In this document: in pieces, positions 7 to 58,383 of the stretch
How the letters are laid out: every line of letters starts with the position of its first letter
How positions within the stretch are numbered: the first letter of the stretch is position 1
NCBI GenBank assembly: GCA_964017195.1
Contig: CAXHKT010000131.1
Span: forward strand, 56,683-120,682
Origin: Siderastrea radians
Taxonomy: Eukaryota > Cnidaria > Anthozoa > Scleractinia > Rhizangiidae
DNA: 64,000 nt
Direction of reading: 5' to 3'
Position numbers and translations under genes: made by a program
The notes under the pieces: generated by a model
Told to the model about the DNA's origin: nothing
What the model saw: the letters and a program-made list of their open reading frames with translations, nothing else
Database searches by the model: none

Positions 7-147
7 CTCCTTTTCCAGTATGGTCAGCCGACGGGCCTGTGTTAGAAGATGACGTTGGTCCCTTATGTCGAGTCCAGTCAAACTTGTCACTTTTGTCCTG
101 CACAAAGCCACACATTGATCTGTCGAAATTGCAAGAGGACGGCCCTA
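7..147 (-). CDS. MAM module 20, exon A only (rest beyond window start)
   Basis: A complete exon A (141 nt, TRHKGPT form) with intact acceptor cctcag/TAGGG and donor GGAG/gtgcgt whose first six intron bases are the first six bases of the window. Exons B and C and the true C-terminus of the protein must lie to the left. Confidence 0.82.
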
Positions 148-3100
148 CTGAGGAAAATAAATAATAGCAACAAATGGTAAAAGAGAACCAACAGATATAA
201 AAATATCAATAAATATTAAACGATAATGAGTACGTATAATCAGAAAAGAAAATAGGAGAGGAAAAAAATGACTCAGAGCTATTCCTTAATAACTAGATTA
301 TCTTGCTTCGTTATGAGAAATTCTCAACTCTTTGCAGTCCCTAAAGGTTCCTTACGATTCACTCTCTGGTGCACTTTACCATCACAGATAAACCACCACA
401 CTGTGAATGCATTTAAAATCCCAGAAGACACACTTTTCGCGTACTAAAATGATCTTTAAGAGGACAGAGCAGAGTTAATGCAGATCACGATTTTAATCGC
501 TCTCAAATACCATGTAATACGTACTTGGAGTACAACGACCCTTGCTTAAAGAGAAGTCGTCAATTGCGATGTCACCAGTAAAGCTGCTTCCTGTTATTCC
601 CTCAAAAATTACCTGCAATGGTTCAAAGAGTTATTAAAACTGCCACTTTAAACTAATCAAGTCTTCTTACAAAAGCGTCGAGCCCCTGCTAAACCGTAAT
701 TTCACTGGGAGAAAACACACTAAATGAAAGTCCTCTTTAATACCACCTTTCAGGGGTTTAAATGTTCTTGCATCCAATAAAAATAGTTTAAACAGTGATT
801 ATTCATTTGAGCTGAAATGATAAATTTTTAAAGAGACGAATATGTTTCACTCAATTCTGAAGATAGCTAATATGGCTAGATGGTAAAAACATTCTTTTTG
901 CGACGAACAAATGGAGTATGTTTAGGACACATGGAACGTGGATAATGCACATTTTCCTGTCAGATATTTGGAGACTAGTTATTTATTACAATGCGTGGTA
1001 GAGCAAAAATCAGGTATAGTGTTTTCTACCAGCTAATTTTAGAACCAGGCCGCAGTTTAATGTTTTCTTACCCTTGCATTTCCAACGCGATATGTGGTTA
1101 TCTTGGCCTCATTCCATTTGTTGCCTTTGTTGCCACTCGCAGAGAACACCCTTCTACCATCGATCATAACATTCAGTCTCCCAATGGTTGAACCATACAT
1201 ATGGTAGAAGAATCTAAGGCACATGTACCCGCTGAAACTCAGCAACGGACTGTTTAGTTTTGCATTGTCACCCAGCCTTCGAGGACTTGACGTTTCTATG
1301 TACATGTAATATCCTGTAAAAAAAAAAAGATAATAATAATAAGAGTACACAACATTAAATTTGATGACCTCAAGTCAACTTCAACGTGGCTTTCCAAGTA
1401 ATATGGCATTGCACGGTTCTTGTGATCTATTTAAGAGACACTTCGAGAGACTTCCACCCGACAAGGCTACTTGCAACCGGCATCAAAAAGGACACGATTT
1501 ATTGTGGAATGTATAGTAAATGAGTTTAAGATTGCCTTGTCACTTCAATTAATGCAAATTTAACAATCCTAGCTTCTTTCATGTGGAAATAATATATATT
1601 TTCAGTTATGCTTTTGATAGAGAAGAATCAAAACTGAAAAAAAAGTTAGTTGCGACTTGTATGTCTTTTATGTCATAAATTTGTTACTTGAATTTACTCG
1701 TTGTTATGAGCACTAATTGAATCTATTTCAAAAAGTAACATGTTACACTTTCTTTTCGTATTCTACTTTTCGAAAGTATGTTTTTATGGAAGAAAGCTTT
1801 CTTGGAGAAGCTGGGAAATGATTAAAATGCATGTAAAAGTAAAACGTACAGGCAAAAAGTCTCCTTAATCACGCACCTCCTTTTCCAGTATGGTCAGCCG
1901 ACGGGCCTGTGTTAGAAGATGACGTTGGTCCCTTATTACGAGTCCAGTCAAACTTGTCACTTTTGTCCTGCACAAAGCCACACATTGATCTGTCGAAATT
2001 GCAAGAGGACGGCCCTACTGAGGAAAATAAATAATAGCAACAAATGGTAAAAGAGAACCCACAGATATAAAAGTATCAATAAATATTAAACGATAATGAG
2101 TACGTATAATCAGAAAAGAAAATAGGGGAGAAAAAAAATGACTCAGAGCTTTTCCTTAATAACTAGATTATCTTGCTTCGTTATGAGAAATTCTCAACTC
2201 TTTGCAGTCCCTAAAGGTTCCTTACGATTCACTCTCTGGTGCACTTTACCATCACAGATAAACCACCACACTGTGAATGCATTTAAAATCCCAGAAGACA
2301 CACTTTTCGCGTACTAAAATGATCTTTAAGAGGACAGAGCAGAGTTAATGCAGATCACGATTTTAATCGCTCTCAAATACCATGTAATACGTACTTGGAG
2401 TACAATGACCCTTGCTTAAAGAGAAGTCGTCAATTGCGATGTCACCAGTAAAGCTGCTTCCTGTTATTCCCTCAAAAATTACCTGCAATGGTTCAAAGAG
2501 TTATTAAAACTGCCACTTTAAACTAATCAAGTTTTCTTACAAAAGCGTCGAGCTCCTGCTAAACCGTAATTTCACTGGGAGAAAACACACTAATGAAAGT
2601 CCTCTTTAATACCACCTTTCAGGGGTTTAAATGTTCTTGCATCCAATAAAAATAGTTTAAACAGTGATTATTCATTTGAGCTGAAATGATAAATTTTTAA
2701 AGAGACGAATATGTTTCACTCAATTCTGAAGATAGCTAATATGCCTAGATGGTAAAAACATTCTTTTTGCGACGAACAAATGGAGTATGTTTAGGACACA
2801 TGGAACGTGGATAATGCACATTTTCCTATCAGATATTTGGAGACTAGTTATTTATTGCAGTGCATGGTAGAGCAAAAATCAGGTATAGTGTTTTCTAGCA
2901 GCTAATTTTAGAACCAGGCCGCAGTTTAATGTTTTCTTACCCTTGCATTTCCAACGCGATATGTGGTTATCCTGGCCTCATTCCATTTGTTGCCTTTGTT
3001 GCCACTCGCAGAGAACACCCTTCTACCATCGATCATAACATTCAGTCTCCCAATGGTTGAACCATACATATGGTAGAAGAATCTAAGGCACATGTACCCG

Positions 3101-6100
3101 CTGAAACTCAGCAACGGACTGTTTAGTTTTGCATTGTCAGCTAGGCTTCGAGGACTTGACGTTTCTATGTACATGTAATATCCTGTGACAAAAAAATAAT
3201 AATAAGAGTACACAACATTAAATTTGATGACCTCAAGTCAACTTCAACGTGGCTTTCCAAGTAATAGGGCATTGCACGGTTCTTGTGATCTATTTATAGT
3301 CGAAATACTCAGCGCGTTCCGCTTATTATTTGGGAATGAGATTCATTAATCGGGAACGGATTGCATTACTGGAATCAAAATTCCACTCTCAAGTTGAACA
3401 TTGTAATGTTCCAACGGTAGCCTTGTTCCAAATAAGGAATGCTGATTGGTTTATTATTGACATCAGGCGAATGTTCACGTGCAAGTAGCAGACTGTTGGC
3501 GGCCAGATGTGTCTGACCTGATTTGTGTTCGCTCAACAAAATATTAATCGCAAGTACTTTTCTCCGTGAAGAAATAGTCTGCTGTTATAAAACTGTGAAG
3601 AATAATTTCATAAAAACAAGTGTGCTTTAAATGCACAAGAAAAGTTTCTGAAAATTGAGAAAACTCCCCGTAATGTCAAACTGACTGAAACCAACAGCCG
3701 CCAACGGTTTCGTATTTCGCGTGTGAACCTTTGGCTTATGTAAGTAACAACCCAATCAACATTCGTTAATTCCAATGAGTCTACCGTTGGAAGATTACAA
3801 TCTTCAATTTAAAAATGGAATTTTGATTCCAATAATGCAATCCGTTCCCGATTAAAGAAAATCATTCCAAAATAATGAGCGGAACGCGCTGAGTATTTTC
3901 ACTGTAAGACACACTTCGATAGACTTTCACCCGACAAGGCTACTTGCAACCGGCATGAAAAGGACACGATTTATTGTGGAATGTATAGCAAATGAGTTTA
4001 AGATTGCCTTGTAACTTCAATTAGTGCAAATTTAACAATTCTAGCTTCTTTCATGTGGAAATGATATATTTTCAGTTATGCTTTTGATAGAGAAGAATCA
4101 AAACTGCAAAAAAGTTAGTTGCCACTTGTATGTCTTTTATGTCACAAATTTGTTGCTTAAATTTACTCGTTGTTATGAGCACTAATTGAATCTATTTCAA
4201 AAAGTAGCATGGCACACTTTCTTTTCGTATTCTACTTTACGAAAGTATGTTTTTATGGAAGAAAGCTTTCTTGGAGAAGCTGGGAAATGATTAAAATGCA
4301 TGTAAAAGTAAAACGTACAGGCAAAAAGTCTTCTTACTCACGCACCTCCTTTTCCAGTGTGGTCAGCCGACGGGCCTGTGTTAGAAGATGACGTTGGTCC
4401 CTTATTACGAGTCCAGTCAAACTTGTCCCTTTTGTCCTGCACAAAGCCACACATTGATCTGTCGAAATTGCAAGAGGACGGCCCTACTGAGGAAAATAAA
4501 TAATAGCAACAAATGGTAAAAGAGAACCAACAGATATAAAAATATTAATAAATATTAAACGATAATGGGTACGTATAATCAGAAAAGAAAATAGGAGAGG
4601 AAAAAAATGACTCAGAGCTATTCCTTAATAACTAGATTATCTTGCTTCGTTATGAGAAATTCTCAACTCTTTGCAGTCCCTAAAGGTTGCTTACGATTCA
4701 CTCTCTGGTGCACTTTACCATCACAGATAAACCACCACATTGTGAATGCATTTAAAATCCCAGAAGACACACTTTTAGCGTACTAAAATATTCTTTAAGA
4801 GGACAGAGCAGAGTTAATGCAGATCACGATTTTAATCGCTCTCAAATACCATGTAATACGTACTTGGAGTACAACGACCCTTGCTTAAAGAGAAGTCGTC
4901 AATTGCGATGTCACCAGTAAAGCTGCTTCCTGTTATTCCTTCAAAAATTACCTGCAATGGTTCAAAGAGTTATTAAACTGCCACTTTAAACTAGTCAAGT
5001 CTTCTTACAAAAGCGTCGCGCCCCTGCCAAACCGTAATTTCACCAGGGAGAAAACACACTAAATGAAAGTCCTCTTTAATACCACCTTTCAAGGGTTTAA
5101 ATGTTCTTGCATCCAATAAAAATAGTTTAAACAGTGATTATTCATTTGAGCTGAAATGATAAATTTTCAAAGAGACGAATATGTTTCACTCAATTCTGAA
5201 GATAGCTAATATGGCTAGATGGTAAAAACATTCTTTTTGCGACGAACAAATGGAGTATGTTTAGGACACATGGAACGTGGATAATGCACATTTTCCTGTC
5301 AGATATTTGGAGACTACTTATTTATCAGTGCATGGTAGAGCAAAAATCAGGTATAGTGTTTTCTACCAGCTAATTTTAGAACCAGGCCGCAGTTTAATGT
5401 TTTCTTACCCTTGCATTTCCAACGCGATATGTGGTTATCCTGGCCTCATACCATTTGTTGCCTTTGTTGCCACTCGCAGAGAACACCCTTCTACCATCGA
5501 TCATGACATTCAGTCTCCCAATGGTTGAACCATACATATGGTAGAAGAATCTAAGGCACATGTACCCGCTGAAACTCAGCAACGGACTGTCTAGTTTTGC
5601 ATTGTCACCTAGCCTTCGAGGACTTGACGTTTCTATGTACATGTAATATCCTGTAAAAAAAAAAATAATAATAAGAGTACACAACATTAAATTTGATGAC
5701 CTCAAGTCAACTTCAACGTGGCTTTCCAAGTAATATGGCATTGCTCGGTTCTTGTGATCTATTTAAGACACGCTTTGATAGACTTTCACCCGACAAGGCT
5801 ACTTGCAACCGGCATGAAAAGGACACGATTTATTGTGGAATGTATAGCAAATGAGTTTAAGATTGCCTTGTCACTACAATTAATGCAAATTTAACAATCC
5901 TAGCTTCTTTCATGTGGAAATGATATATTTTCAGTTATGCTTTTGATAGAGAAGAATCAAAACTGAAAACAAGTTAGTTGCCACTTGTATGTCTTTTATG
6001 TCATAAATTTGTTACTTGAATTTACTCGTTGTTATGAGCACTAATTGAATCTATTTCAAAAAGTAACATGTTACACTTTCTTTTCGTATTCTACTTTTCG

Positions 6101-9100
6101 AAAGTATGTTTTTATGGAAGAAAGCTTTCTTGGAGAAGCTGGGAAATGATTAAAATGCATGTAAAAGTAAAACGTACAGGCAAAAAGTCTCCTTAATCAC
6201 GCACCTCCTTTTCCAGTATGGTCAGCCGACGGGCCTGTGTTAGAAGATGACGTTGGTCCCTTATTACGAGTCCAGTCAAACTTGTCACTTTTGTCCTGCA
6301 CAAAGCCACACATTGATCTGTCGAAATTGCAAGAGGACGGCCCTACTGAGGAAAATAAATAATAGCAACAAATGGTAAAAGAGAACCAACAGATATAAAA
6401 ATATCAATAAATATTAAACGATAGTGAGTACGTATAATCAGAAAAGAAAATAGGAGAGGAAAAAAATGAGTCAGAGCTATTCCTTAATAACTAGATTATC
6501 TTGCTTCGTTATAAGAAATTCTCAACTCTTTGCAGTCCCTAAAGGTTCCTTACGATTCACTCTCTGGGGCACTTTACCATCACAGATAAACCACCACACT
6601 GTGAATGCATTTAAAATCCCAGAAGACACACTTTTAGCGTACTAAAATATTCTTTAAGAGGACAGAGCAGAGTTAATGCAGATCACGATTTTAATCGCTC
6701 TCAAATACCATGTAATACGTACTTGGAGTACAACGACCCTTGCTTAAAGAGAAGTCGTCAATTGCGATGTCACCAGTAAAGCTGCTTCCTGTTATTCCTT
6801 CAAAAATTACCTGCAATGGTTCAAAGAGTTATTAAACTGCCACTTTAAACTAATCAAGTCTTCTTACAAAAGCGTCGCGCCCCTGCCAAACCGTAATTTC
6901 ACCAGGGAGAAAACACACTAAATGAAAGTCCTCTTTAATACCACCTTTCAAGGGTTTAAATGTTCTTGCATCCAATAAAAATAGTTTAAACAGTGATTAT
7001 TCATTTGAGCTGAAATGATAAATTTTCAAAGAGACGAATATGTTTCACTCAATTCTGAAGATAGCTAATATGGCTAGATGGTAAAAACATTCTTTTTGCG
7101 ACGAACAAATGGAGTATGTTTAGGACACATGGAACGTGGATAATGCACATTTTCCTGTCAGATATTTGGAGACTAGTTATTTATCAGTGCATGGTAGAGC
7201 AAAAATCAGGTATAGTGTTTTCTACCAGCTAATTTTAGAACCAGGCCGCAGTTTAATGTTTTCTTACCCTTGCATTTCCAACGCGATATGTGGTTATCCT
7301 GGCCTTATACCATTTGTTGCCTTTGTTGCCACTCGCAGAGAACACCCTTCTACCATCGATCATGACATTCAGTCTCCCAATGGTTGAACCATACATATGG
7401 TAGAAGAATCTAAGGCACATGTACCCGCTGAAACTCAGCAACGGACTGTTTAGTTTTGCATTGTCACCTAGCCTTCGAGGACTTGACGTTTCTATGTACA
7501 TGTAATATCCTGTAAAAAAAAAATAATAATAAGAGTACACAACATTAAATTTGATGACCTCAAGTCAACTTCAACGTGGCTTTCCAAGTAATATGGCATT
7601 GCTCGGTTCTTGTGATCTATTTAAGACACGCTTTGATAGACTTTCACCCGACAAGGCTACTTGCAACCGGCATGAAAAGGACACGATTTATTGTGGAATG
7701 TATAGCAAATGAGTTTAAGATTGCCTTGTCACTACAATTAATCCAAATTTAACAATCCTAGCTTCTTTCATGTGGAAATGATATGTTTTCAGTTATGCTT
7801 TTGATAGAGAAGAATCAAAACTGAAAACAAGTTAGTTGCCACTTGTATGTCTTTTATGTCATAAATTTGTTACTTGAATTTACTCGTTGTTATGAGCACT
7901 AATTGAATCTATTTCAAAAAGTAACATGTTACACTTTCTTTTCGTATTCTACTTTTCGAAAGTATGTTTTTATGGAAGAAAGCTTTCTTGGAGAAGCTGG
8001 GAAATGATTAAAATGCATGTAAAAGTAAAACGTACAGGCAAAAAGTCTCCTTAATCACGCACCTCCTTTTCCAGTATGGTCAGCCGACGGGCCTGTGTTA
8101 GAAGATGACGTTGGTCCCTTATTACGAGTCCAGTCAAACTTGTCACTTTTGTCCTGCACAAAGCCACACATTGATCTGTCGAAATTGCAAGAGGACGGCC
8201 CTACTGAGGAAAATAAATAATAGCAACAAATGGTAAAAGAGAACCAACAGATATAAAAATATCAATAAATATTAAACGATAGTGAGTACGTATAATCAGA
8301 AAAGAAAATAGGAGAGGAAAAAAATGAGTCAGAGCTATTCCTTAATAACTAGATTATCTTGCTTCGTTATGAGAAATTCTCAACTCTTTGCAGTCCCTAA
8401 AGGTTCCTTACGATTCACTCTCTGGGGCACTTTACCATCACAGATAAACCACCACACTGTGAATGCATTTAAAATCGCAGAAGACACACTTTTAGCGTAC
8501 TAAAATATTCTTTAAGAGGACAGAGCAGAGTTAATGCAGATCACGATTTTAATCGCTCTCAAATACCATGTAATACGTACTTGGAGTACAACGACCCTTG
8601 CTTAAAGAGAAGTCGTCAATTGCGATGTCACCAGTAATGCTTCTTCCTCTTATTCCTTCAAAAATTACCTGCAATGGTTCAAAGAGTTATTAAAACTGCC
8701 ACTTTAAACTAATCAAGTCTTCTTACAAAAGCGTCGCGCCCCTGCCAAACCGTAATTTCACCAGGGGGAAAACACACTACATGAAAGTCCTCTTTAATAC
8801 CACCTTTCAAGGGTTTAAATGTTCTTGCATCCAATAAAAATAGTTTAAACAGTGATTATTCATTCGAGCTGAAATGATAAATTTTCAAAGAGACGAATAT
8901 GTTTCACTCAATTCTGAAGATAGGTAAAATGCCTAGATGGTCAAAACATTCTTTTTGCGACGAACAAATGGAGTATGTTTAGGACACATGGAACGTGGAT
9001 AATGCACATTTTCCTGTCAGATATTTGGAGACTAGTTATTTATTACAGTGCATGGTAGAGCAAAAATCAGGTATAGCGTTTTCTAGCAGCTAATTTTAGA

Positions 9101-17848: not shown

Positions 17849-17879
<31 letters not shown>

Positions 17880-44800: not shown

Positions 44801-47800
44801 TTCAATTAATGCAAATTTAACAATCCTAGCTTCTTTCATGTGGAAATGATATAGTTTCAGTTATGCTTTTGATAGAGAAGAATCAAAACTGAAAACAAGT
44901 TAGTTGCCACTTGTATGTCTTTTATGTGATAAATTTGTTACTTGAATTTACTCGTTGTTATGAGCACTAATTGAATCTATTTCAAAAAGTAACATGTTAC
45001 ACTTTCTTTTCGTATTCTACTTTTCGAAAGTATGTTTTTATGGAAGAAAGCTTTCTTGGAGAAGCTGGGAAATGATTAAAATGCATGTAAAAGTAAAACG
45101 TACAGGCAAAAAGTCTCCTTAATCACGCACCTCCTTTTCCAGTATGGTCAGCCGACGGGCCTGTGTTAGAAGATGACGTTGGTCCCTTATTACGAGTCCA
45201 GTCAAACTTGTCACTTTTGTCCTGCACAAAGCCACACATTGATCTGTCGAAATTGCAAGAGGACGGCCCTACTGAGGAAAATAAATAATAGCAACAAATG
45301 GTAAAAGAGAACCAATAGATATAAAAATATCAATAAATATTACACGATTATGAGTACGTATAATCAGAAAAGAAAATAGGAGAGGAAAAAAATGAGTCAG
45401 AGGTATTCCTTAATAACTAGATTATCTCGCTTCGTTATTAGAAATTCTTAACTCTTTGCAGTCCCTAAAGGTTGCTTACGATTCACTCTCTGGGGCCCTT
45501 TACCATCACAGATAAACCACCACACTGTGAATGCATTTAAAATCCCAGAAGACACACTTTTAGCGTACTAAAATATTCTTTAAGAGGACAGAGCAGAGTT
45601 AATGCAGATCACGATTTTAATCGCTCTCAAATACCATGTAATACGTACTTGGAGTACAACGACCCTTGCTTAAAGAGAAGTCGTCAATTGCGATGTCACC
45701 AGTAATGCTTCTTCCTGTTATTCCCTCAAAAATTACCTGCAATGGTTCAAAGAGTTATTAAAACTGCCACTTTAAACTAATCAAGTCTTCTTACAAAAGT
45801 GTCGCGCCCCTGCCAAACCGTAATTTCACCAGGGAGAAAACACACTAAATGTAAGTCCTCTTTAATACCACCTTTCAAGGGTTTAAATGTTCTTGCATCC
45901 AATAAAAATAGTTTAAACAGTGATTATTCATTTGAGCTGAAATGATAAATTTTCAAAGAGACGAATATGTTTCACTCAATTCTGAAGATAGCTAATATGC
46001 CTAGATGGTCAAAACATTCTTTTTGCGACGAACAAATGGAGTATGTTTAGGACACATGGAACGTGGATAATGCACATTTTCCTGTCAGATATTTGGAGAC
46101 TAGTTATTTATTACAGTGCATGGTAGAGCAAAAATCAGGTATAGCGTTTTCTAGCAGCTAATTTTAGAACCAGGCCGCAGTTTAATGTTTTCTTACCCTT
46201 GCATTTCCAACGCGATATGTGGTTATCCTGGCCTCATACCATTTGTTGCCTTTGTTGCCACTCGCAGAGAACACCCTTCTACCATCGATCATGACATTCA
46301 GTCTCCCAATGGTTGAACCATACATATGGTAGAAGAATCTAAGGCACATGTACCCGCTGAAACTCAGCAACGGACTGTTTAGTTTTGCATTGTCACCTAG
46401 CCTTCGAGGACTTGACGTTTCTATGTACATGTAATATCCTGTAAAAAAAAAATAATAATAAGAGTACACAACATTAAATTTGATGACTTCAAGTCAACTT
46501 CAAGGTGGCTTTCCAAGTAATATGGCATTGCTCGGTTCTTGTGATCTATTTAAGACACACTTTGATAGACTTTCACCCGACAAGGCTACTTGCAACCGGC
46601 ATGAAAAGGACACGATTTATTGTGGAATGTATAGCAAATGAGTTAAGATTGCCTTGTCACTGCAATTAATGCAAATTTAACAATCCTAGCTTCTTTCATG
46701 TGGAAATGATATATTTTCAGTTATGCTTTTGATAGAGAAGAATCAAAACTGAAAACAAGTTAGTTGCCACTTGTATGTCTTTTATGTGATAAATTTGTTA
46801 CTTGAATTTACTCGTTGTTATGAGCACTAATTGAATCTATTTCAAAAAGTAACATGTTACACTTTCTTTTCGTATTCTACTTTTCGAAAGTATGTTTTTA
46901 TGGAAGAAAGCTTTCTTGGAGAAGCTGGGAAATGATTAAAATGCATGTAAAAGTAAAACGTACAGGCAAAAAGTCTCCTTAATCACGCACCTCCTTTTCC
47001 AGTATGGTCAGCCGACGGGCCTGTGTTAGAAGATGACGTTGGTCCCTTATGTCGAGTCCAGTCAAACTTGTCACTTTTGTCCTGCACAAAGCCACACATT
47101 GATCTGTCGAAATTGCAAGAGGACGGCCCTACTGAGGAAAATAATTAATAGCAACAAATGGTAAAAGAGAACCAACAGATATAAAAACATCAATAAATAT
47201 TAAACGATAATGAGTACGTATAATCAGAAAAGAAAATAGGAGAGGAAAAAAATGACTCACAGCTATTCCTTAATAACTAGATTATCTTGCTTCGTTATGA
47301 GAAATTCTCAACTCTTTGCAGTCCCTAAAGGTTGCTTACGATTCACTCTCTGGGGCACTTTACCATCACAGATAAACCACCACACTGTGATGTGCATTTA
47401 AAATCCCAGAAGACACACTTTTAGCGTACTAAAATGTTCTTTAAGAGGACAGAGCAGGGTTAATGTCAAGATCACGATTTTAATCGCTCTCAAATACCAT
47501 GTAATACGTACTTGGAGTACAACGACCCTTGCTTAAAGAGAAGTCGTCAATTGCGATGTCACCAGTAAAGCTGCTTCCTGTTATTCCCTCAAAAATTACC
47601 TGCAATGGTTCAAAGAGTTATTAAAACTGCCACCTTAAACTAATCAAGTCTTCTTACAAAAGCGTCGCGCCCCTGCCAACCCGTAATTTCACCAGGGAGA
47701 AAACACACTAAATGAAAGTCCTCTTTAATACCACCTTTCAAGGGTTTAAATGTTCTTGCATCCAATAAAAATAGGTTAAACAGTGATTCTGCATTTGAGC

Positions 47801-50800
47801 TGAAATGATAAATTTTCAAAGAGACGAATATGTTTCACTCAATTCTGAAGATAGCTAATATGCCTAGATGGTCCAATCATTCTTTTTGCGACGAACAAAC
47901 AGAGTATGTTTAGGACACATGGAACATGGATAATGCACATTTTCCTGTCAGATATTTGGAGACTAGTTATTTATTACAATGCGTGGTAGAGCAAAAATCA
48001 GGTATAGTGTTTTCTAGCAGCTAATTTTAGAACCAGGCCGCAGTTTAATGTTTTCTTACCCTTGCATTTCCAACGCGATATGTGGTTATCCTGGCCTCAT
48101 TCCATTTGTTGCCTTTGTTGCCACTCGCAGAGAACACCCTTCTACCATCGATCATAACATTCAGTCTCCCAATGGTTGAACCATACATATGGTAGAAGAA
48201 TCTAAGGCACATGTACCCGCTTAAACGCAGCAGTGGGCTGTTTAGTTTTGCATTGTCACCTAGCCTTCGAGGACTTGACGTTTCTATGTACATGTAGTAT
48301 GCTGTAAAAAAATTTTGAGTATAGAACATTTAATGTGTTGACCTGATGTCAACTTTAAGGTGGCTTTCCAAATAATATGGCATGGCATTATTCTTGTCTT
48401 TTATTTGAAGGACACGTCGATTGATTTTAACCCGACAAGTGCACCTGGACTTAAAAGGGCGCGATTTATTGTGGTTCTTATAAGAATTGAAGTTAAGATT
48501 GGTATTTCACAACAATCAAATTTAACAATCCTTCTGTCATGTGGAAATGATTTAACTTCTTTTATCTTTATGATAGAGAAGAATAAAACCGGAAAAAATT
48601 ACTTACTACAAGATGTGTGTGTTTTCTATCGTAAATTTATGTAATTAAATACAAGCAAATTCCCTTTAATCTCTCACCTCCCTTTCCAGTATGGTCAGCC
48701 GACGGGCCTGTGTTAGAAGACGACGTTGGTCCCTTATGTCGAGTCCAGTCAAACTTGTCACTTTTGTCTTGCAGAAAGCCACACATTGATCTGTCGAAAT
48801 CGCAAGAAGCCACTAAAAATAGAAAAAAAAAAAAAGAAAAATAATAAGAACTGGACAAAGAACAAATATTTTAGATGGGTCAATATTGTTTTACAAAAAG
48901 CAACTTAAAATGTGGTAATATTTTTATTTCCCAATTTGTAAGCACCGTATGTATGAAATTCTAGCGAATTGTTTAATCGTAGAAATATTTTAGACTAGGC
49001 TCGTGTATATTGAGTGTAAGATGTATAGTTTTTATTTGGTTTTGAAAATTCGAGCATCACCTTGAAAACGGCAAATATAATTCATTAATAATGATAAGTA
49101 AAATAGTTACGTGAAAGTTTATCGAAAATAGGACACTGGCAATATTCCAAATAGCAATTCATGGTAATGCCACAGCAACTTAGTTTAACTAGACTTAAAG
49201 GGTATTAAAACATATTGTTTAGTAAAGGAATAGGCTTTGTTGTTGGAGCTGGGATTCCTGCATTGTTTGACGACACAAACTGGAACTCGAAACAAACTGA
49301 AAATCTTGACAATTACCGCATATAAAAATTAATTGCCTAGAGATCATAGTTCGATCAACATCCAGCTTCGAAGAAAGAATTTAAAAGAAAAAAAAATAGG
49401 TGCCTTAGAACACAGGTTGTACTGAGGTTATTTCACAGGCACTTAAAAGTCATTTGTGTTTTATCAGAAAACCCTGACCCGCAGGAATGACTGTAAGAAA
49501 CACGGAAAATTTGCCAGTTTCAGAAGTGTGCCATTAAGTAGCACCTTGATGGATGGTTCCTCTTATTCCTAAAAGGATTTCGATTTATCGCCAAATTTTT
49601 AAACGTGTCAATACAAATAAGGGATGCTTAAATTAGTATTCACTCTGCGCACTGATTGTGAACTATGATGTGGGTCAGTCTCACCCGGTGGATCGCTCAT
49701 TGCATCATGAACACTCTCAAATGAATCATTTTTCAGCTCCATTGCAGTGTCTTGGTCATTAACCTGCGACTTCTCATCTTCAGCTTCATCTCCTAGTTCT
49801 GGGTTGTCTGTAAACAGAAATGAGCTGATTTGAAACGATAACAAAATATGTGTTATGAATATATTTTCTTAGAGTTAAATTTCTGAGAACGAACAAATTT
49901 GGTATCTTTTACACAGCTTCAAAAGTTGTACTATAACACGTATTTAATCTTCATCTTAAACTTATGTTATCAATTGCTCTCAGAATTTCAAAGTGAATCT
50001 TGCGTTACTATATTATTGTTTTATCCTTCTTTTGTACTTAGAATAGTTTCCTACAACTAGTCACGGTATGGTTTCCAGATATATTGTTGTCCAAAGAGGA
50101 TATATTGTTGAAGAAAGGGTAAGTAAACAAGTATAAACAACAGGGCACCTAACGAGAAAATTTTAGCAAAATAATTGAAATATCATTTTCTACTTTCTTA
50201 GGTTGTTTCAGAGCTTTTTAAAGGCAAATTTGTGTAAGCTAACACAGGTTGACCTGTTCCGAGCTTTTAGCTGAAAATTCAGGCGGCAGAAAATTTTAGG
50301 AAACAGATCTTTCCTATCCGCCGAACTTCCGAGCTGCTGATAGCTCTCCGAAAATGCTAGCTGTCCTTATATTACACTCTAAACAACATATTTTGTCATC
50401 CGAAAACCATATGAAGTAATCAGTCCCCTTACTACGAAAGTCTGAGGTGATGTTTTGCCAAAGAAATGTCTACATCCGAATATCTCAGGCGATCTAGGCC
50501 TCACCGAACAGATATTTCCCGAAGCAAGCCATTGGGTGCCTCTGAAACACGGCGAGTTACTGTGATGTGAACGTGAGTTTCCCGAGCAAGTGTGGCGTAA
50601 ATAATTAAGGGCATTCAATTAAAGTAGCCTGCTTTATCCCCTACCAACCCATGTATTTCAGCACAGTCCCAGAAGACAAGCTAACTAAACGTTGTCGTAC
50701 TTTCAGCTAAGTCATATTCCAGAGATTTTCCATCCGCTTCCTCGTAGCTATTCCTAACGACTTCTTCCTCCATTGACGAGGACTGCTCATATTCTTTCCG

Positions 50801-51947
50801 AGTTTCTTCGTCGCTAGCTCCGCCTATTGATGGTTTTCCATTCCCAGTTTCATCGATTGGTTGTTCCTCATTCACATCTCTATTGATCAGTGGATCCTTG
50901 TCTCCGACTTTAATGATCGGTGGTTGCTCGTCTTCAACTCCAGCGATCGATGGATCCTCGTCTCCGACTCCAGCGATCAGTAGCTGCTCGTCTCCGACTC
51001 CAGCAGTCGGTGGTTCTTCGTCCCCAACTCCATTGATCTGTTCAGTTGGATCTTTATATACATCAAGCGGCACTTGTTTCAGCTGTTCTTGTGGTTCCTT
51101 TGGAATAACTGTTGACCACAGAAAAAAAAGAGTAGGAAAATTTAACCGACCCTGAAGAGAAATTTTTGTACCAATAAGGAAGAATTGTAATTTGAACCAA
51201 CGTTTTGTAATAATTAAAAAGTGCTAGTTTACAACCCTCTATGGCACTGATAACAACTCAGACAAGAATCCTCTTTTTTCTTACTTGCAATGTGGGCGGA
51301 AATTTGATTTAAAGAGAAAGCATTGTCGTAAAATTCCATTGGCTAACTAGCAAAGAATTTTTTTACACCACCTACAAGACTGGCTTGTAACTCTATTAAG
51401 ACCCGTACGGTGATGCCTTCGCGATCCAACTATGTAGTATTTATCACCCACCATTACTGACTTGCCAACAGCTCTCGGCAGGGGAGAAGAAAAGCGTACG
51501 ATATGCAATACAGTGCAATTAATTTCAGGTCACAGTGTATTCTTACCGGTAAATGAAGTCAAGATCGACTAAATTTCTAGTAATGAAATGTCGTTCAAAT
51601 GGCAACGAGCCTACGTCTTATAAAGGAAAACAAGTAACGCTACTTGGTTTTTTAACAAATGACACCGAAACAAAACAGAAAATAGTATGTTAAAGATTGT
51701 TCTAGATAGTTGCAAAAGAGGTGTATCAAATTTCCTGAAAATTCTAACATGAAACAAATCTGTTTTATTCATTTCTCGCTGATACAAACCAAAAAAAGTT
51801 CTCGGCACAGCTTTTATGTCGCGGTAATTTTATTTCTTTAGTAAAAGTCATGAATGGACAGAAATGAGATGAGAACTTACCTTTGAACGAGAAAGCGTAC
51901 TGCAATGTTGCCACAAAAAGAAGGAGGGATGTGCAGTGAAGACGCAT
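7..51947 (-). CDS. Giant secreted acidic multi-MAM-domain protein gene (3' end outside window)
   Basis: Predicted gene on the minus strand, starting at the ATG at 51947. It has three N-terminal exons (signal peptide, acidic repeat, acidic linker), then 19 complete MAM modules and the first exon of a 20th. Each module has exons A, B and C, joined A-B in phase 1, B-C in phase 0 and C-next A in phase 1, with GT/AG borders throughout. Every module has the four conserved MAM cysteines and the family signatures (FDW, GP..DHT, YMYIETS, FFYHMYG, GDIAIDD). MAM domains are extracellular adhesion or assembly modules, so the product is inferred to be a secreted multidomain matrix or adhesive protein. No transmembrane segment or stop exon is in the window, so the C-terminus is unknown. 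Predicted coding length here is 9,682 nt. Module identity is extreme and copy number may be mis-assembled. Introns not listed separately hold nothing recognisable beyond the mobile elements listed. Confidence 0.83.
525..2017 (-). CDS. MAM module 19 (exons A 1877-2017, B 1072-1313, C 525-612)
   Basis: Exon B has the private change [10 protein letters not shown]. Exon C is SSF class. This is the last complete module in the window. Confidence 0.85.
2395..4486 (-). CDS. MAM module 18 (exons A 4346-4486, B 2941-3182, C 2395-2482), MITE in intron
   Basis: Exon A has DKRDKFDW in place of DKSDKFDW. Exon B has [10 protein letters not shown] in place of [10 protein letters not shown] and the KWNEARITT form. 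Exon C is SSF class. A 608-bp MITE sits in the A-B intron, 115 bp from exon B. Splice borders are intact. Confidence 0.84.
3297..3904. mobile_element. 608-bp Tc1/mariner-like MITE, TA target duplication
   Basis: Inserted in the A-B intron of module 18. Flanks read gatctatTTA at the left and TAagacac at the right, while empty modules read ctatttaagacac, so the target duplication is TA. The ends are inverted repeats (tagtcgaaatactcagcg at the left; the right end read on the other strand is cagtgaaaatactcagcg), extending imperfectly for about 150 bp on each side. There is no open reading frame, so it is non-autonomous. The TA duplication and CAGT-type end fit Tc1/mariner. Confidence 0.85.
4864..6345 (-). 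CDS. MAM module 17 (exons A 6205-6345, B 5409-5650, C 4864-4951)
   Basis: Exon B has NAKLDSPLL in place of NAKLNSPLL. Exon C is SSF class. Intron sequence is close to module 16. Confidence 0.85.
6723..8203 (-). CDS. MAM module 16 (exons A 8063-8203, B 7268-7509, C 6723-6810)
   Basis: Exon B has a private change, [10 protein letters not shown]. Exon C is SSF class. The last base of the C exon pattern and all six splice borders agree with the other modules. Confidence 0.85.
8581..15122 (-). CDS. MAM module 15 (exons A 14982-15122, B 9129-9370, C 8581-8668), full DIRS in intron
   Basis: Exon A is the KGAT form, exon B the common form and exon [11 protein letters not shown]. The A-B intron holds a full-length DIRS retrotransposon in the same orientation as the gene, beginning 8 nt after the exon A donor (GGAG/gtgcgtga). 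Splicing would have to remove an intron of about 5.6 kb containing the whole element. Confidence 0.82.
9981..10161. repeat. DIRS left inverted terminal repeat
   Basis: Reverse complement of 14772-14952, with near-identity from tatgagaaaacatcaggtag through gagccctccat. The outermost bases beyond each repeat (9919-9980 and 14953-14975) differ between the two ends, as in DIRS elements. Confidence 0.88.
10274..10397. repeat. DIRS internal complementary region
   Basis: The left half (10274-10346) is the reverse complement of the left outer end (9919-9991). The right half (10348-10397) is the reverse complement of the right outer end (about 14926-14975). Joined back to back, they form the template that DIRS elements are thought to use to close a circular intermediate. 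Its position, 3' of the recombinase in element orientation, is the standard one. Confidence 0.87.
10614..11561 (-). CDS. DIRS tyrosine recombinase
   Basis: The C-terminal 315 codons of an 823-codon open frame; the part upstream of 11561 overlaps the RT frame and is probably not separate protein. From the Met at 11561 it has an N-terminal core-binding region ([19 protein letters not shown]), then the catalytic tyrosine-recombinase residues: Arg150 in [11 protein letters not shown], His264 and Arg267 in FKAHSVRG, and nucleophile Tyr300 or Tyr301 in FQKFYYKP. It would integrate the circular DNA form of the element. It overlaps the RT-RNase H frame by about 140 nt, as is common in DIRS elements. 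Confidence 0.88.
   Translation of the reverse strand: MGIPDNITEILLSASRPSTRKTYQSAWRRWSGWCVKRKTDPLSAPLTDILLYLTEYFNSGAAYCSVNVARSAISTSHTKLNGLPVGQNPLVIQLLKGMFNNRPPKPRYSHTWEVSLVTTYLASLGSNRSLSLKQLSWKLAMLFSLTCPERVSALTKLDLRHCRILPDGVEFILSSPRKRGTADQLPKAFFARFPSNSKLCPVETLRCYLKATRSVCPAIPSSKPDPLFISYVKPHKPISAPSLARWLRSLLKASGVNSDIFKAHSVRGASTTAAANSNVPLSEILKMADWSSPSTFQKFYYKPVHSSTFAHAVLH
11423..13336 (-). CDS. DIRS reverse transcriptase-RNase H
   Basis: A 637-residue frame. RT motifs are visible in order: [20 protein letters not shown] (about 49-68), [11 protein letters not shown] (99-109), [13 protein letters not shown] (131-143) and the catalytic YLDD (164-167). RNase H follows, with [11 protein letters not shown] (329-339), the Glu in NVLELKAA (about 363), the Asp in RMDNTTA (388) and [15 protein letters not shown] (429-443). 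The last 150 residues contain the DIRS-typical segment [11 protein letters not shown] and [13 protein letters not shown]. The Met at 13336 may not be the true start, because the frame could be reached from gag by frameshift or reinitiation. It overlaps the recombinase frame at its 3' end. Confidence 0.92.
   Translation of the reverse strand: MRCKPVQFSLPVTNPNQVNAHLIDSEVESLLTKGAIAETPPIREGFFSRLFLVPKKGGTFRPGIDLSFLNKFVENSHFQMESIHCLKSLLQKGDYMTTLDLKDAYLSVPVHKDSQKFLQFLWRDKCYAFQGLCFGLNTAPRIFTKLLKPVAAFLRKRGVRMILYLDDFLILGSTYQEAQSHTALAVSLLESLGFTINREKSRLIPTQIITFLGFVIDSTVETLSLPQEKVVKVKSLCMKATVTPTMSARQIASLLGTLESCRPAIWQAPLHFRYLQIRMIQALHVNNQNFDVFITLDHNSLEELRWWVSNINFVNGSPIRPPAPTLFITTDASKTGWGAVCESQRTNGRWSVSERTQHINVLELKAAFLALKSFLKKQSHKVVCLRMDNTTAVAHVNNKGGTHSPCLLALTLELWRWCLERNIMISAQHVPGKLNTIADSESRVFNDSSEWKIDPQTISPFLKGCKIDLFASRLSTQLPQYVSWRPDPEALHADALTMDWAPFKGYAFPPFNLIPAVLNKLSQDKADIILVAPIWPAQPWWPLLLSLLVEQPVLLPSYRHLLRDPADPQRIHPMFPRLHLAVFHVSGDSTRQWEFQTTLRRFSSQHPAHLQEKPINQLGDAGVAGVLRERLILFQRH
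13402..14604 (-). CDS. DIRS gag-like protein
   Basis: A 400-residue open frame that is the first coding region of the DIRS element. The N-terminus is very basic and Ser/Arg-rich ([19 protein letters not shown]), followed by a possible coiled coil at about residues 45-75 ([20 protein letters not shown]). About residues 115-150 hold a short Pro/Glu/Asn repeat (RANEPPT). The C-terminus is basic and Pro/Arg-rich. No zinc knuckle is visible, as is common for DIRS gag-like proteins, so the assignment rests mainly on position and composition. It ends 66 nt before the first Met of the RT frame. Confidence 0.75.
   Translation of the reverse strand: MSKKRHRSHSRFRSSSKHGRRSDPEKSPPPSAHKRPRTSNEEQDSLSAILKTLQEVQQDLKHTNDRVSSIEKHWHQNLTVFPPDPSVETDTLSVMVHSDEDLALSDSEGLVTALRPPARANEPPTRANEPPTEVSEPQSGVNKPPNEAEGRPNAPNVSSNGGDLYDPDSQQSSWEPKANFTAFLEKHFRRKLTYDQVSDILDSYSIPSVDCLFSPTLDNSVLNQISPLKSRKYTQERDKELASVQRSMLNITGPLCCLHDALCSEQEISKDDIKLILEQSLCSLLGSANFQFSALRRKKILVTINKEKIGLADQPLPNAKRKLFGDDFPSIASKQADLSRGLAKNLGAASRPAKRPRSGPSRPPNKDKPFAGSYSKYNNRPKNGRSFRVPKQEAKESTHS
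14772..14952. repeat. DIRS right inverted terminal repeat
   Basis: Reverse complement of 9981-10161. It lies upstream of the gag-like frame and would carry the element's promoter region. A short spacer (about 14605-14771) separates it from gag. Confidence 0.88.
15500..22026 (-). CDS. MAM module 14 (exons A 21886-22026, B 16048-16289, C 15500-15587), TTAA element in intron
   Basis: Exon A is the TRHKGPT form. Exon B has SGNRGNKW in place of SGNKGNKW. Exon C reads [10 protein letters not shown]. The A-B intron is expanded to about 5.6 kb by a 5,040-bp inverted-repeat element. Splice borders are intact. Confidence 0.82.
17847..17879. repeat. (CAA)n microsatellite
   Basis: About eleven CAA units followed by A-rich sequence with CAAA and GCAA units. 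On the opposite strand it produces poly-Cys or poly-Val frames with no coding meaning. Confidence 0.85.
17958..18410. mobile_element. Nested 453-bp MITE with GCTTATAAG-rich inverted ends
   Basis: The left end reads taccgtcaactgccgcttat and the right end, reverse-complemented, reads taccgttaactgccacttat. Several further copies of gggcttataa occur inside. It lies within the TTAA element. Target duplication is not clear. Confidence 0.65.
18410..21230. other. Interior of the TTAA element without recognisable genes
   Basis: Apart from the palindrome at 19262-19385 I see only short frames with no family resemblance. The stretch near 18808-18900 (ggctaacgctcgaaacgtca) resembles a widespread cnidarian interspersed repeat; this is a memory-based impression. 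The rest shows nothing that I can name. Confidence 0.4.
19262..19385. repeat. 124-bp near-perfect palindrome
   Basis: The two arms, cgctgtgatggcagacgtca and its reverse complement, meet at about 19323 (gaagacccgggaccgggtcttc). Only a few mismatches are seen, so the single strand could form a hairpin of about 58 bp. It is inside the TTAA element. The flanking sequence ggatggttctccacc is itself the reverse complement of a stretch near 18808, so the palindrome belongs to a larger inverted structure. Confidence 0.85.
22404..23891 (-). CDS. MAM module 13 (exons A 23751-23891, B 22951-23192, C 22404-22491)
   Basis: Exon A has KGAT and exon C is the SSF class ([10 protein letters not shown]), an isolated SSF copy between RSI-class neighbours. 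The B-C intron lacks one base in the run tgaaatgtaaattt, and the A-B intron has a small insertion (cttttaatttgatag). Confidence 0.84.
24269..28574 (-). CDS. MAM module 12 (exons A 28434-28574, B 24815-25056, C 24269-24356), DIRS remnant in intron
   Basis: Exon A has the KGAT variant in place of KGPT, shared with modules 13 and 15. Exon C reads [10 protein letters not shown], shared with modules 14 and 15. The A-B intron contains an internally deleted DIRS element, inserted 8 nt after the exon A donor. All six splice borders remain intact, so the module can still be spliced in principle. Confidence 0.82.
25958..26081. repeat. Internal complementary region of the deleted DIRS copy
   Basis: Same arrangement as at 10274-10397: the reverse complement of the left outer end followed by that of the right outer end (tggtataattgggattatat at the join). 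Confidence 0.82.
26298..27245 (-). CDS. DIRS tyrosine recombinase, second copy
   Basis: Equivalent to 10614-11561, with the same [19 protein letters not shown] and FQKFYYKP motifs, so the catalytic Arg, His, Arg and Tyr are retained. One visible difference is RSVRPAIP against RSVCPAIP. The gene may be intact although its element lacks gag and RT. Confidence 0.82.
   Translation of the reverse strand: MGIPDNITEILLSASRPSTRKTYQSAWRRWSGWCVKRKTDPLSAPLTDILLYLTEYFNSGAAYCSVNVARSAISTSHTKLNGLPVGQNPLVIQLLKGMFNNRPPKPRYSHTWEVSLVTTYLASLGSNRSLSLKQLSWKLAMLFSLTCPERVSALTKLDLRHCRILPDGVEFILSSPRKRGTADQLPKAFFARFPSNSKLCPVETLRCYLKATRSVRPAIPSSKPDPLFISYVKPHKPISAPSLARWLRSLLKASGVNSDIFKAHSVRGASTTAAANSNVPLSEILKMADWSSPSTFQKFYYKPVHSSTFAHAVLH
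27107..28260 (-). pseudogene. DIRS RT-RNase H fragment, RT catalytic half deleted
   Basis: Retains sequence from about residue 251 of the intact copy ([13 protein letters not shown]) to the end, so RNase H is present but the RT fingers and palm are gone. The RNase H motif reads [10 protein letters not shown] where the intact copy has GWGAV. The frame stays open upstream to 28429 only because it runs through terminal-repeat sequence. Confidence 0.85.
28952..30435 (-). CDS. MAM module 11 (exons A 30295-30435, B 29500-29741, C 28952-29039)
   Basis: Common exon sequences with RSI-class C. This is the low-coordinate end of the first four-module block. The block similarity to module 7 is lost between about 28810 and 29150, within or next to exon C. 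Confidence 0.85.
30813..32296 (-). CDS. MAM module 10 (exons A 32156-32296, B 31361-31602, C 30813-30900)
   Basis: Exon C has the [10 protein letters not shown] variant shared with module 6. The introns share gcaaaaaacaggtat, atatagtttcag and cactacttgaatat with module 6. Confidence 0.85.
32674..34156 (-). CDS. MAM module 9 (exons A 34016-34156, B 33222-33463, C 32674-32761)
   Basis: Common exon sequences with RSI-class C. The polypyrimidine tract before exon B is one or two T shorter than in its neighbours. It shares accatgaaatacg, aaacagtaatttc and taagtgttcttacatcc with module 5. Confidence 0.85.
34534..35966 (-). CDS. MAM module 8 (exons A 35826-35966, B 35082-35323, C 34534-34621)
   Basis: Common form with an RSI-class exon C. 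The A-B intron lacks 51 bp between ttcttgt and aaccggcatg (near 35428), giving a unit period of 1,810 bp. The partner module 4 keeps these 51 bp, so the deletion followed the block duplication. Coding exons and splice borders are intact. Confidence 0.85.
36344..37827 (-). CDS. MAM module 7 (exons A 37687-37827, B 36892-37133, C 36344-36431)
   Basis: Common form with an RSI-class exon C. The intron marker aaatgtaagtcc and the gtatagcg/gacttcaag combination match module 11, its duplication partner. Confidence 0.85.
38205..39688 (-). CDS. MAM module 6 (exons A 39548-39688, B 38753-38994, C 38205-38292)
   Basis: Exon C reads [10 protein letters not shown] because of an ATA-to-CTA change that is shared only with module 10. 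The intron markers gcaaaaaacaggtat and cactacttgaatat are also shared with module 10, 7,392 bp away. Confidence 0.85.
40066..41549 (-). CDS. MAM module 5 (exons A 41409-41549, B 40614-40855, C 40066-40153)
   Basis: Common exon A, B and RSI-class C sequences. Intron markers accatgaaatacg, aaacagtaatttc and taagtgttcttacatcc are shared with module 9, which lies 7,392 bp away. Confidence 0.85.
41927..43410 (-). CDS. MAM module 4 (exons A 43270-43410, B 42475-42716, C 41927-42014)
   Basis: Exon B has a private substitution, GSAIGRLNV instead of GSTIGRLNV. Exon C is RSI class. Intron markers (aacatggata, atatagtttcag, tgtttatatgg) are shared with module 8, its partner in the four-module duplication. 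Confidence 0.85.
43788..45271 (-). CDS. MAM module 3 (exons A 45131-45271, B 44336-44577, C 43788-43875)
   Basis: Typical module with TRNKGPT in exon A and the RSI-class exon C. The B-C intron carries the marker gtttaagtgttcttac, otherwise seen only in modules 5 and 9, so this module looks like a mosaic of two array lineages. Confidence 0.85.
45649..47131 (-). CDS. MAM module 2 (exons A 46991-47131, B 46197-46438, C 45649-45736)
   Basis: Exon A has the [10 protein letters not shown] variant shared with modules 1, 14 and 20. Exon B is the common [11 protein letters not shown] form. Exon C is the RSI class ([10 protein letters not shown]). Junctions are cctcag/TAGGG, GGAG/gtgcg, ttacag/GATAT, AAGG/gtaaga, ttgcag/GTAAT and CCAA/gtacg, the pattern followed by all later modules. 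Confidence 0.85.
47512..48812 (-). CDS. MAM module 1 (exons A 48678-48812, B 48060-48301, C 47512-47599)
   Basis: The 5'-most MAM domain. Exon A is 135 nt, six nt shorter than in later modules, because it begins [12 protein letters not shown] rather than [14 protein letters not shown]. Exon B carries [10 protein letters not shown] and the variant PLLRLSGYM. Exon C carries [15 protein letters not shown] and ends GRCTP. The A-B intron (48302-48677) is shorter and clearly more diverged than in other modules, and the period to module 2 is only 1,687 bp. This edge module seems to have escaped the homogenisation that affects the rest of the array. Four canonical MAM cysteines are present. Confidence 0.85.
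49685..49807 (-). CDS. Exon 3: acidic linker before the MAM array
   Basis: Acceptor tttacag/ACAACC and donor CCGG/gtgaga define 123 nt in phase 1-1 (41 codons). The sequence begins [19 protein letters not shown] and ends MSDPP, which joins in frame to VASCDFD of the first MAM module. It is strongly acidic with no cysteines and reads as a linker between the repeat region and the first globular domain. Its phases match exons 2 and A1 exactly, which is the main support. The intron that follows (48813-49684) shows nothing recognisable. Confidence 0.72.
50701..51108 (-). CDS. Exon 2: acidic low-complexity repeat region
   Basis: Acceptor caacag/TTATTCC and donor GAAA/gtacga give a 408-nt phase 1-1 exon (136 codons). 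The product is rich in Asp and Glu and carries about five imperfect 10-residue repeats of the form [30 protein letters not shown], followed by more acidic Ser/Glu-rich sequence (SSSMEEEVV). Acidic, disordered extracellular tracts often bind calcium or cationic surfaces, and that role here is inference. The same DNA is a degenerate 30-bp tandem repeat between about 50880 and 51035. The reverse strand also stays open, which is a by-product of the repeat. The intron that follows (49808-50700) holds nothing recognisable. Confidence 0.72.
51881..51947 (-). CDS. Exon 1: signal peptide of the multi-MAM protein
   Basis: Starts at the ATG at 51947 and reads [20 protein letters not shown] then FK before the donor AAAG/gtaagt. 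A basic residue is followed by a hydrophobic core (LLLFVA) and a small-residue cleavage region (AFS), a typical eukaryotic signal peptide, so the product should enter the secretory pathway. Length is 67 nt, ending in phase 1, which matches the phase-1 acceptor of exon 2. Upstream in-frame sequence gives no better start. The following intron (51109-51880) shows no recognisable content. Confidence 0.75.
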
Positions 51948-58068: not shown

Positions 58069-58150
58069 TTATGAAACAAAGTTTAAGTCAATCTATCAGT
58101 CAGTGTTGATCGGTTCATTGAATGAACAAACGGCCAATCGGAAGGTTAAT

Positions 58151-58215
58151 CGGTCGGTCGGTCAGTCGGTCGGTCGGTCGGTCAGTCGGTCGGTCGGTCG
58201 GTCAGTCCGGCGCGG
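58151..58215. repeat. (CGGT)n simple repeat
   Basis: About 15 tandem CGGT units with occasional CAGT variants. The plus-strand frame through it is an artefact (repeated RSVG). Confidence 0.9.
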
Positions 58216-58383
58216 TCAGTCGATCAGTTAGTCCTTCAGTCGCTCAATTAAACTTTACTAATCCCAATGAAATTGCAGCAACAACATCCTCTTTTGAAGC
58301 AGGAAAAACTCTTTCTGGGCTTTACAGGGGGATATCAATCTGCGACCTACCAATCCCACGCCAGCTTTGCCTTGAAGTTATTA

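What the first reader, a model, noticed from the sequence alone, without database searches (positions are those of the whole stretch)
7..51947. A giant secreted protein built from at least 20 nearly identical MAM domains behind an acidic N-terminus
The sequence shows a signal-peptide exon, two acidic exons and then a long array of three-exon MAM modules, all in one orientation with matching splice phases and no stop between modules. Most known MAM proteins have one or a few diverged MAM domains mixed with other domains. A run of 20 or more near-identical ones is unusual. The predicted product exceeds 3,200 residues and is not complete in this window. A repetitive adhesive or matrix polymer, possibly associated with a coral skeleton or mucus, would fit, but that function is inference.
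Basis: partly seen in the sequence, partly recalled or inferred. Interest (0 to 1): 0.87.

Follow-up and report, generated by a model that had tools for sequence, protein, structure and literature searches.

The report
Coral giant protein of twin repeats
A stony coral carries a gene model for a huge secreted protein made of twenty almost identical adhesion domains in a row, strongly positively charged, which looks like a natural adhesive fibre kept uniform by repeated copying within the gene; its job is not yet known.

Summary
The minus strand carries one coherent 61-exon open frame: signal peptide, two acidic exons, 19 complete three-exon MAM modules and the first exon of a twentieth, no stop, canonical splice sites. 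Left of the window, in the same 120.7-kb contig, the model ends with module 20 and one PAN-like exon: 64 exons, about 3,440 residues. Mitochondrial NAD2 is 100% identical to Siderastrea radians, so the host is a stony coral of that genus. 'Most MAM proteins have few' needs correcting: 34 of 234 database relatives have 20 or more MAM domains, but diverged ones (mean internal identity 0.24-0.48); here it is 0.97. Also unusual: uniform 6-residue linkers and the highest net charge per MAM of 235 proteins, +7.7. Introns are homogenised too, with an edge effect and a duplicated retroelement-bearing module, pointing to unequal exchange; dN/dS 0.19 against a paralogous array suggests the protein is used, though the signal inside the array is weak. 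Best guess: polycationic adhesive or matrix fibre; gamete recognition is the main rival. No RNA or protein evidence. New variant of a known kind.

The parts
51881..51947 (-). exon 1, signal peptide [22 protein letters not shown]
   Evidence: judged by eye, no signal-peptide program
50701..51108 (-). exon 2, acidic, with about 5 copies of a 30-base / 10-residue repeat ([10 protein letters not shown] type)
49685..49807 (-). exon 3, acidic
47512..48812 (-). MAM module 1 (the most diverged of the 19: 93-95% aa to the others)
45649..47131 (-). MAM module 2
43788..45271 (-). MAM module 3
41927..43410 (-). MAM module 4
40066..41549 (-). MAM module 5
38205..39688 (-). MAM module 6
36344..37827 (-). 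MAM module 7
34534..35966 (-). MAM module 8
32674..34156 (-). MAM module 9
30813..32296 (-). MAM module 10
28952..30435 (-). MAM module 11
24269..28574 (-). MAM module 12; intron 1 holds an internally deleted DIRS-type element
22404..23891 (-). MAM module 13
15500..22026 (-). MAM module 14; intron 1 holds a 5-kb insert with 0.7-kb inverted ends
8581..15122 (-). MAM module 15; intron 1 holds a DIRS-type element
6723..8203 (-). MAM module 16
4864..6345 (-). MAM module 17
2395..4486 (-). MAM module 18; intron 1 holds a 0.6-kb insert with inverted ends
525..2017 (-). MAM module 19
7..147 (-). first exon of MAM module 20; its exons 2 and 3 (C124:55898-56139, 55295-55385) and a terminal PAN-like exon (C124:54178-54426) lie left of the window

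Best explanation
One gene of a Siderastrea coral encodes a secreted protein of about 3,440 residues: signal peptide, an acidic head of about 178 residues (net -36), twenty MAM domains joined by the same 6-residue linker (twenty modules net +154) and a PAN-like end. Shown from sequence: the anatomy as a gene model, the uniformity, the charge, purifying selection on the module against a paralogous array, and marks of unequal exchange. Inferred: it acts as a multivalent polycationic fibre. Each MAM is one binding unit; twenty in register on short linkers give avidity and reach; the positive surface binds polyanions (mucus, sulphated glycans, acidic matrix proteins), and MAM-MAM contacts and the opposite-charged head help it assemble side by side into an adhesive or gel-forming extracellular layer. 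Copy number, rather than sequence, is what changes readily.
For: Coherent gene model of 64 exons, 0 stops, canonical splice dinucleotides. MAM E 6e-39; best solved relative is the MAM domain of MDGA1. Module period 157 aa in 19 of 19 steps, linker the same each time. Array pI 9.59, head pI 4.05 (array as far as it lies in the window); net +154 over twenty modules; +7.7 per MAM is the highest of 235 proteins, next +3.6, median -6.0; 17 of 21 basic positions are basic in under 25% of 2,989 other MAM domains; charge largely kept in paralogous arrays (consensus +8 against +6, with three R-to-K exchanges). dN/dS 0.19 between array consensus sequences, Fisher p 1.2e-7. No length change in exons of 19 modules, 18 gap intervals in introns. 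Edge effect (Spearman -0.63, p 0.003) and a same-site retroelement, 99.7% identical, in modules 12 and 15.
Against: No RNA, peptide or localisation data. Within the window array the replacement/silent balance is only weakly below neutral: 21 replacement to 14 silent for 19 modules (p 0.013), and 16 to 7 for modules 2-19 (p 0.31). Array C of the same genome is near-identical too but has net charge 0 per module, so uniformity does not need positive charge. MAM self-association is known for other proteins, not tested here. The acidic head has no match among 234 proteins and no Pfam match. The PAN-like end is below Pfam's cut-off (18.1 against 21.4 bits), and its place in the gene rests on phase and splice sites. 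Polycation-polyanion binding is chemistry by inference.
Confidence: 0.45

Rival explanations
1. Gamete-recognition protein: an egg-coat or sperm protein whose repeats are homogenised like those of abalone VERL, so that copy number and sequence turn over between species.
For: Same evolutionary signature as VERL (repeats 3-22 at least 95% identical in the sequenced allele, repeats 1 and 2 evolving apart: PMC2704960, passages); here module 1 is diverged and the middle is uniform. Fish proteins whose listed Pfam domains (TIL, VWD) are of zonadhesin type also have runs of near-identical MAMs (P0195, P0210 and others). A MAM/LDL-receptor transcript is among genes up in premature/mature ovaries of Euphyllia (PMC7579821, passages). 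Fertilisation is the most enriched term in expanding families of S. siderea (PMC11370458, section 17).
Against: No VWD, TIL or ZP domain in the parts scanned by Pfam. dN/dS 0.19 between arrays, no sign of positive selection. Most entries called zonadhesin outside placental mammals differ markedly from true ones (PMC9275260, passages). In zonadhesin the egg-coat binding lies in VWD, not MAM (same, and PMC1325057, passages). The GO term may itself come from loose annotation.
Confidence: 0.2
2. Component of the coral skeletal organic matrix.
For: MAM and LDL-receptor proteins 1 and 2 are reported as well represented in Acropora millepora skeleton (PMC4043741, passages) and one was found in A. digitifera skeleton (PMC4890752, passages). 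The acidic head could bind mineral.
Against: Those are long mixed-domain proteins with a homologue in non-calcifying Nematostella, not this gene; P0125 and P0126, of Nematostella and Pocillopora, share an irregular linker pattern unlike this one. The array is strongly basic.
Confidence: 0.13
3. A by-product: recent unequal exchange has inflated a working MAM gene, and copy number has no special function.
For: Homogenised arrays recur in this genome (8, 11 and 10 modules); tandem duplications are reported as more abundant in S. siderea than in many taxa compared (species here not settled); silent/replacement balance inside the array is nearly neutral.
Against: No broken module in 19 complete ones, no length change in their exons against 18 gap intervals in introns, charge and frame conserved against paralogue.
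Confidence: 0.15
4. Artefact: assembly expansion, or separate genes or pseudogenes read together.
For: The array lies on a small contig of 120,682 bp in an assembly with contigs up to at least 75 Mb; no reads or RNA seen.
Against: Every pair among units 2-11 differs by at least 2 bases over the unit; inserts sit in intron 1 of only four of the modules; the signal-peptide exon has one real match on the contig; phases fit throughout.
Confidence: 0.07

Closest known systems
Coral MAM-plus-trypsin proteins (Acropora palmata P0134, A. muricata P0001, Montipora P0004, Porites P0019)
   Same: MAM arrays, in Acropora also near-identical (P0134: 12 MAM, mean 0.93; P0001: 8 MAM, 0.95)
   Different: linkers of 18 residues (Acropora) or 14-47 (the others), trypsin domains at one or both ends (listed Pfam and sequences), net charge +1.4 to +2.6 per MAM; no trypsin match on this contig
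Giant MAM or MAM/LDL-receptor proteins (Nematostella P0125, Pocillopora P0126, Glandiceps P0121; skeletal proteins B3EWZ5 and B3EWZ6 of A. millepora)
   Same: for the three P entries: 24-33 MAM domains, 4,060-5,452 residues
   Different: diverged MAMs (0.45-0.48 in these three, 0.24-0.48 in all 34), irregular linkers, other domains in many
Aciniform spidroin AcSp1 (PMC3933166, passages)
   Same: works alike in design: unique ends around long repeats, 98.7% nucleotide identity, intragenic concerted evolution
   Different: not related by sequence as far as known (recall), no introns; here each repeat spans three exons and the introns are homogenised too
Abalone VERL (PMC2704960, PMC8830517, passages)
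   Same: about 22 repeats, 20 of them near-identical, first repeats diverged
   Different: ZP-N repeats, egg-coat receptor; no ZP match here in the parts scanned

Membership tests
MAM domain family (PF00629) | Pfam MAM profile over the curated cut-off; four conserved cysteines (the latter recalled) | tested here: met
   133.8 bits, cut-off 26.4, profile positions 1-157 of 158, for one module; all 20 found by a home-made profile; cysteines at module positions 2, 9, 75 and 151 (by eye)
[quoted passage not shown]
   19 of 19 linkers are 6 residues; no LDLa in module, head or end by Pfam
Coral MAM-trypsin proteins | trypsin domain at one or both ends | tested here: not met
   no tblastn match (E up to 1e-3) of the trypsin-bearing parts of five coral proteins on contig C124 or near arrays A and B
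Zonadhesin | VWD/TIL domains besides MAM domains | tested here: not met
   none by Pfam in module, head or terminal exon
VERL and egg-coat ZP proteins | ZP domain | tested here: not met
   none by Pfam in module, head or terminal exon
PAN/apple domain (terminal exon) | Pfam PAN_1 over cut-off | tested here: inconclusive
   E 0.0025, 18.1 bits against 21.4 on the trimmed exon; not listed on the longer form
Skeletal organic matrix protein | peptides found in cleaned skeleton | not testable with these tools
   no proteome data here

The most novel reading that the evidence does not exclude
A new class of animal structural protein: a 'MAM silk', a natural polymer built of near-identical positively charged MAM domains with an opposite-charged head, in which intragenic concerted evolution runs through exons and introns alike and lets a coral tune fibre length by copy number; several such arrays of different charge (window +8, A and B +6, C 0 per module) would form a set of matched fibres.
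Probability: 0.22. Interest if true: 0.75.

Novelty: new variant of a known kind. Interest (0 to 1): 0.5.

Why it matters
If the array is one protein, it is the most uniform long MAM protein among the 235 compared (one shorter protein with 7 MAMs is more uniform), and a clear case of whole-unit homogenisation (exons with introns) in an animal gene, with paralogous arrays in the same genome for comparison. It would give a tractable material: a folded cationic repeat that may bind mucus or matrix in seawater. It also suggests that short-read coral genomes and proteomes may have collapsed or missed such genes (inference). If it proves to be a gamete protein instead, it offers a VERL-like system in corals.

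Tried and rejected
Trypsin domain at the 3' end, as in the nearest coral relatives: looked for and not found. C124 as the other haplotype of array A or B: rejected, since outside the arrays A has no match to C124 and B one of 65 bases at E up to 1e-10, and modules differ by 10%; my first count for B used wrong array bounds and was redone. Whether C124 is a second haplotype of some other place was not tested. I first counted 12 modules in array B (note); the count by exon is 11. PAN-like exons near arrays A and B: weak tblastn pieces lay in short frames broken by stops. The 5' and 3' ends of genes A and B were not resolved. Solved structures for the PAN-like exon: 0 at E up to 10. Literature: 'tandem MAM domains', 'MAM repeats' and 'multiple MAM domains' had no occurrence in the 25 listed of 97 papers; 'MAM domain' with 'tandem repeats' and 'cnidarian' gave 0 papers. 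AlphaFold was not run: spliced proteins of this gene are outside the tool's stated inputs.

Full report
What is there. A BLAST scan of the window found 19 full copies of a unit of about 1.86 kb plus a partial one. On the minus strand each unit holds three exons that encode one MAM domain; 20 first exons, 19 second and 19 third exons are in the window. The signal-peptide exon (51881-51947) and two acidic exons (50701-51108, 49685-49807) precede them. The 61 exons give 3,227 residues, 0 stops, canonical splice borders and phases that fit. One module scores 133.8 bits against Pfam MAM (cut-off 26.4), and its nearest solved relative is the MAM domain of MDGA1 (E 3e-40).

Beyond the window. The window is the right end of a contig of 120,682 bp in an assembly of 804.8 Mb and 439 contigs. 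Left of the window the twentieth module is completed and is the last; its third exon has 91 bases instead of 88. One further exon with compatible phase (C124:54178-54426) encodes a cysteine-rich domain that matches PAN_1 just below the cut-off (18.1 of 21.4 bits). The model then has 64 exons and 3,421 residues up to the end of that exon as spliced; read on without a splice, the same frame meets a stop after 16 more residues. That this exon belongs to the gene rests on splice sites and phase only.

Which organism. The assembly has a 19,383-bp mitochondrial contig whose gene order I know as that of stony corals from recall. Its NAD2 matches Siderastrea radians at 100% over the 365 residues of that entry, next Porites rus at 96%. 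The published S. siderea assembly has 822 Mb and a 19,387-bp mitochondrial genome (PMC11370458, passages). So genus Siderastrea, species not settled; the matched entry stands for a cluster of 31 sequences.

How uniform. The 19 complete modules in the window have 14 distinct coding sequences and 12 distinct proteins; modules 5, 7, 8, 9 and 11 have identical coding sequence. Introns are nearly as alike: modules 2-19 differ on average by 1.3, 1.8 and 1.7% in introns 1, 2 and 3, and by 0.95% in exons (intron 1 for 14 of 19 modules). No two units among modules 2-11 are identical (minimum 2 differences). Units two and four apart are more alike than in shuffled order (fractions 0.009 and 0.012; lags 1, 3 and 5 not). 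Modules near the ends are more diverged (Spearman -0.63, p 0.003, 20 modules). Modules 12 and 15 carry a DIRS-type element at the same site; their introns match at 99.7% over 3.2 kb, about 0.5 kb of this being intron, and the copy in 12 is internally deleted. So a module with its insert was copied. Together this is what unequal exchange, perhaps with gene conversion, gives.

Is it used. Against a paralogous array on C1, the module consensus differs with dS 0.286 and dN 0.053, ratio 0.19 (Fisher p 1.2e-7). Inside the window array the signal is weak: 14 silent and 21 replacement changes for 19 modules (p 0.013), 7 and 16 without module 1 (p 0.31). The exons of 19 modules have no length change; introns have 18 distinct gap intervals.

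Other arrays. Array A (C1:52.112-52.123 Mb) has 8 modules and array B (C1:52.324-52.340 Mb) 11; within arrays modules differ by 1.6 and 1.8%, A against B 1.8%, window against A or B about 10%. A and B share flanks of over 3 kb at 97.3% and 89.6%, so they are a recent duplicate or a duplicated assembly stretch. Array C (C1:22.52-22.56 Mb) has 10 modules with nearly identical protein pieces; whether it is one gene was not worked out. The window array and the A/B arrays are thus each uniform within themselves and apart from each other.

How unusual. I scored 234 database proteins (the best 120 of each of two searches, less overlap) and the window gene with one home-made MAM profile. 34 of 234 have 20 or more MAM domains, with mean internal identity 0.24 to 0.48 and 0 to 3 domains with a twin at 95% or more; the window gene has 0.972 and 20 of 20. 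The nearest with many domains is Acropora palmata P0134 (12 MAM, 0.93, 11 with a twin); a fish protein, P0054, has 7 at 0.998, so it is more uniform though shorter. These are hits chosen by similarity, and short-read assemblies may have collapsed such arrays, so nothing here says how common they are in nature. Linkers are 6 residues in 19 of 19 cases here; in Nematostella P0125 and Pocillopora P0126 they vary from 4 to 142. Net charge per MAM is +7.7 here, the highest of 235, next +3.6, median -6.0. 17 of 21 basic positions are basic in under 25% of 2,989 other domains, while 11 of 14 positions that are often acidic elsewhere are acidic here too.

Interpretation. The design is that of a fibre protein: unique ends around a long run of near-identical units, as in aciniform spidroin (PMC3933166, passages). 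MAM domains are described as adhesive and important for multimerisation (PMC1325057, passages). The positive array with a negative head suggests binding to polyanionic mucus, glycan or acidic matrix and perhaps self-pairing; this step is inference. In cnidarians, MAM/LDL-receptor proteins occur in coral skeleton (PMC4043741, PMC4890752, passages), one transcript is up in the anemone pedal disc (PMC6626399, passage) and one in coral ovaries (PMC7579821, passages), so place cannot be told from family alone. Gamete recognition is the strongest rival, because homogenised repeats with diverged first units also mark VERL (PMC2704960, passages) and because fertilisation leads the expanding gene families of S. 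siderea (PMC11370458, section 17); against it stand the lack of ZP or VWD domains in the parts scanned and the low dN/dS.

Limits. No RNA, read or protein data were available. Two whole-genome questions (other copies of the acidic head and of the terminal exon) did not complete by the busy tool. The signal peptide was judged by eye.

Noticed in passing
window 9371-14981 and 25057-28433: DIRS-type retroelement (reverse transcriptase over cut-off, tyrosine recombinase at 26.6 bits just under 27.1) in intron 1 of module 15, and an internally deleted same-site copy in intron 1 of module 12.
   Followed up: partly
window 16290-21885: Different 5-kb insert in intron 1 of module 14 with about 700-base inverted arms 80% alike and no reading frame of 150 aa or more.
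   Followed up: no
window 3297-3905: About 0.6-kb insert with inverted ends in intron 1 of module 18, MITE-like by eye.
   Followed up: no
first exons of modules 2-20: Tandem acceptor CAG-TAG (NAGNAG) in frame, so each linker could be spliced one residue shorter (by eye).
   Followed up: no
window 61237 onward, + strand: A start codon followed by a hydrophobic stretch and a splice-like end looks like the signal-peptide exon of another secreted protein (by eye).
   Followed up: no
G000 C4:55.86-55.94 Mb and 56.22-56.29 Mb: Two MAM clusters about 355 kb apart with matching spacing, a likely large duplication or duplicated assembly stretch.
   Followed up: no
L034:341-790: Mitochondrial COX1 is split, with an endonuclease-like reading frame (by eye) before its second part; ND5 is split too.
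   Followed up: no
window 58150-58233: TCGG tandem repeat.
   Followed up: no
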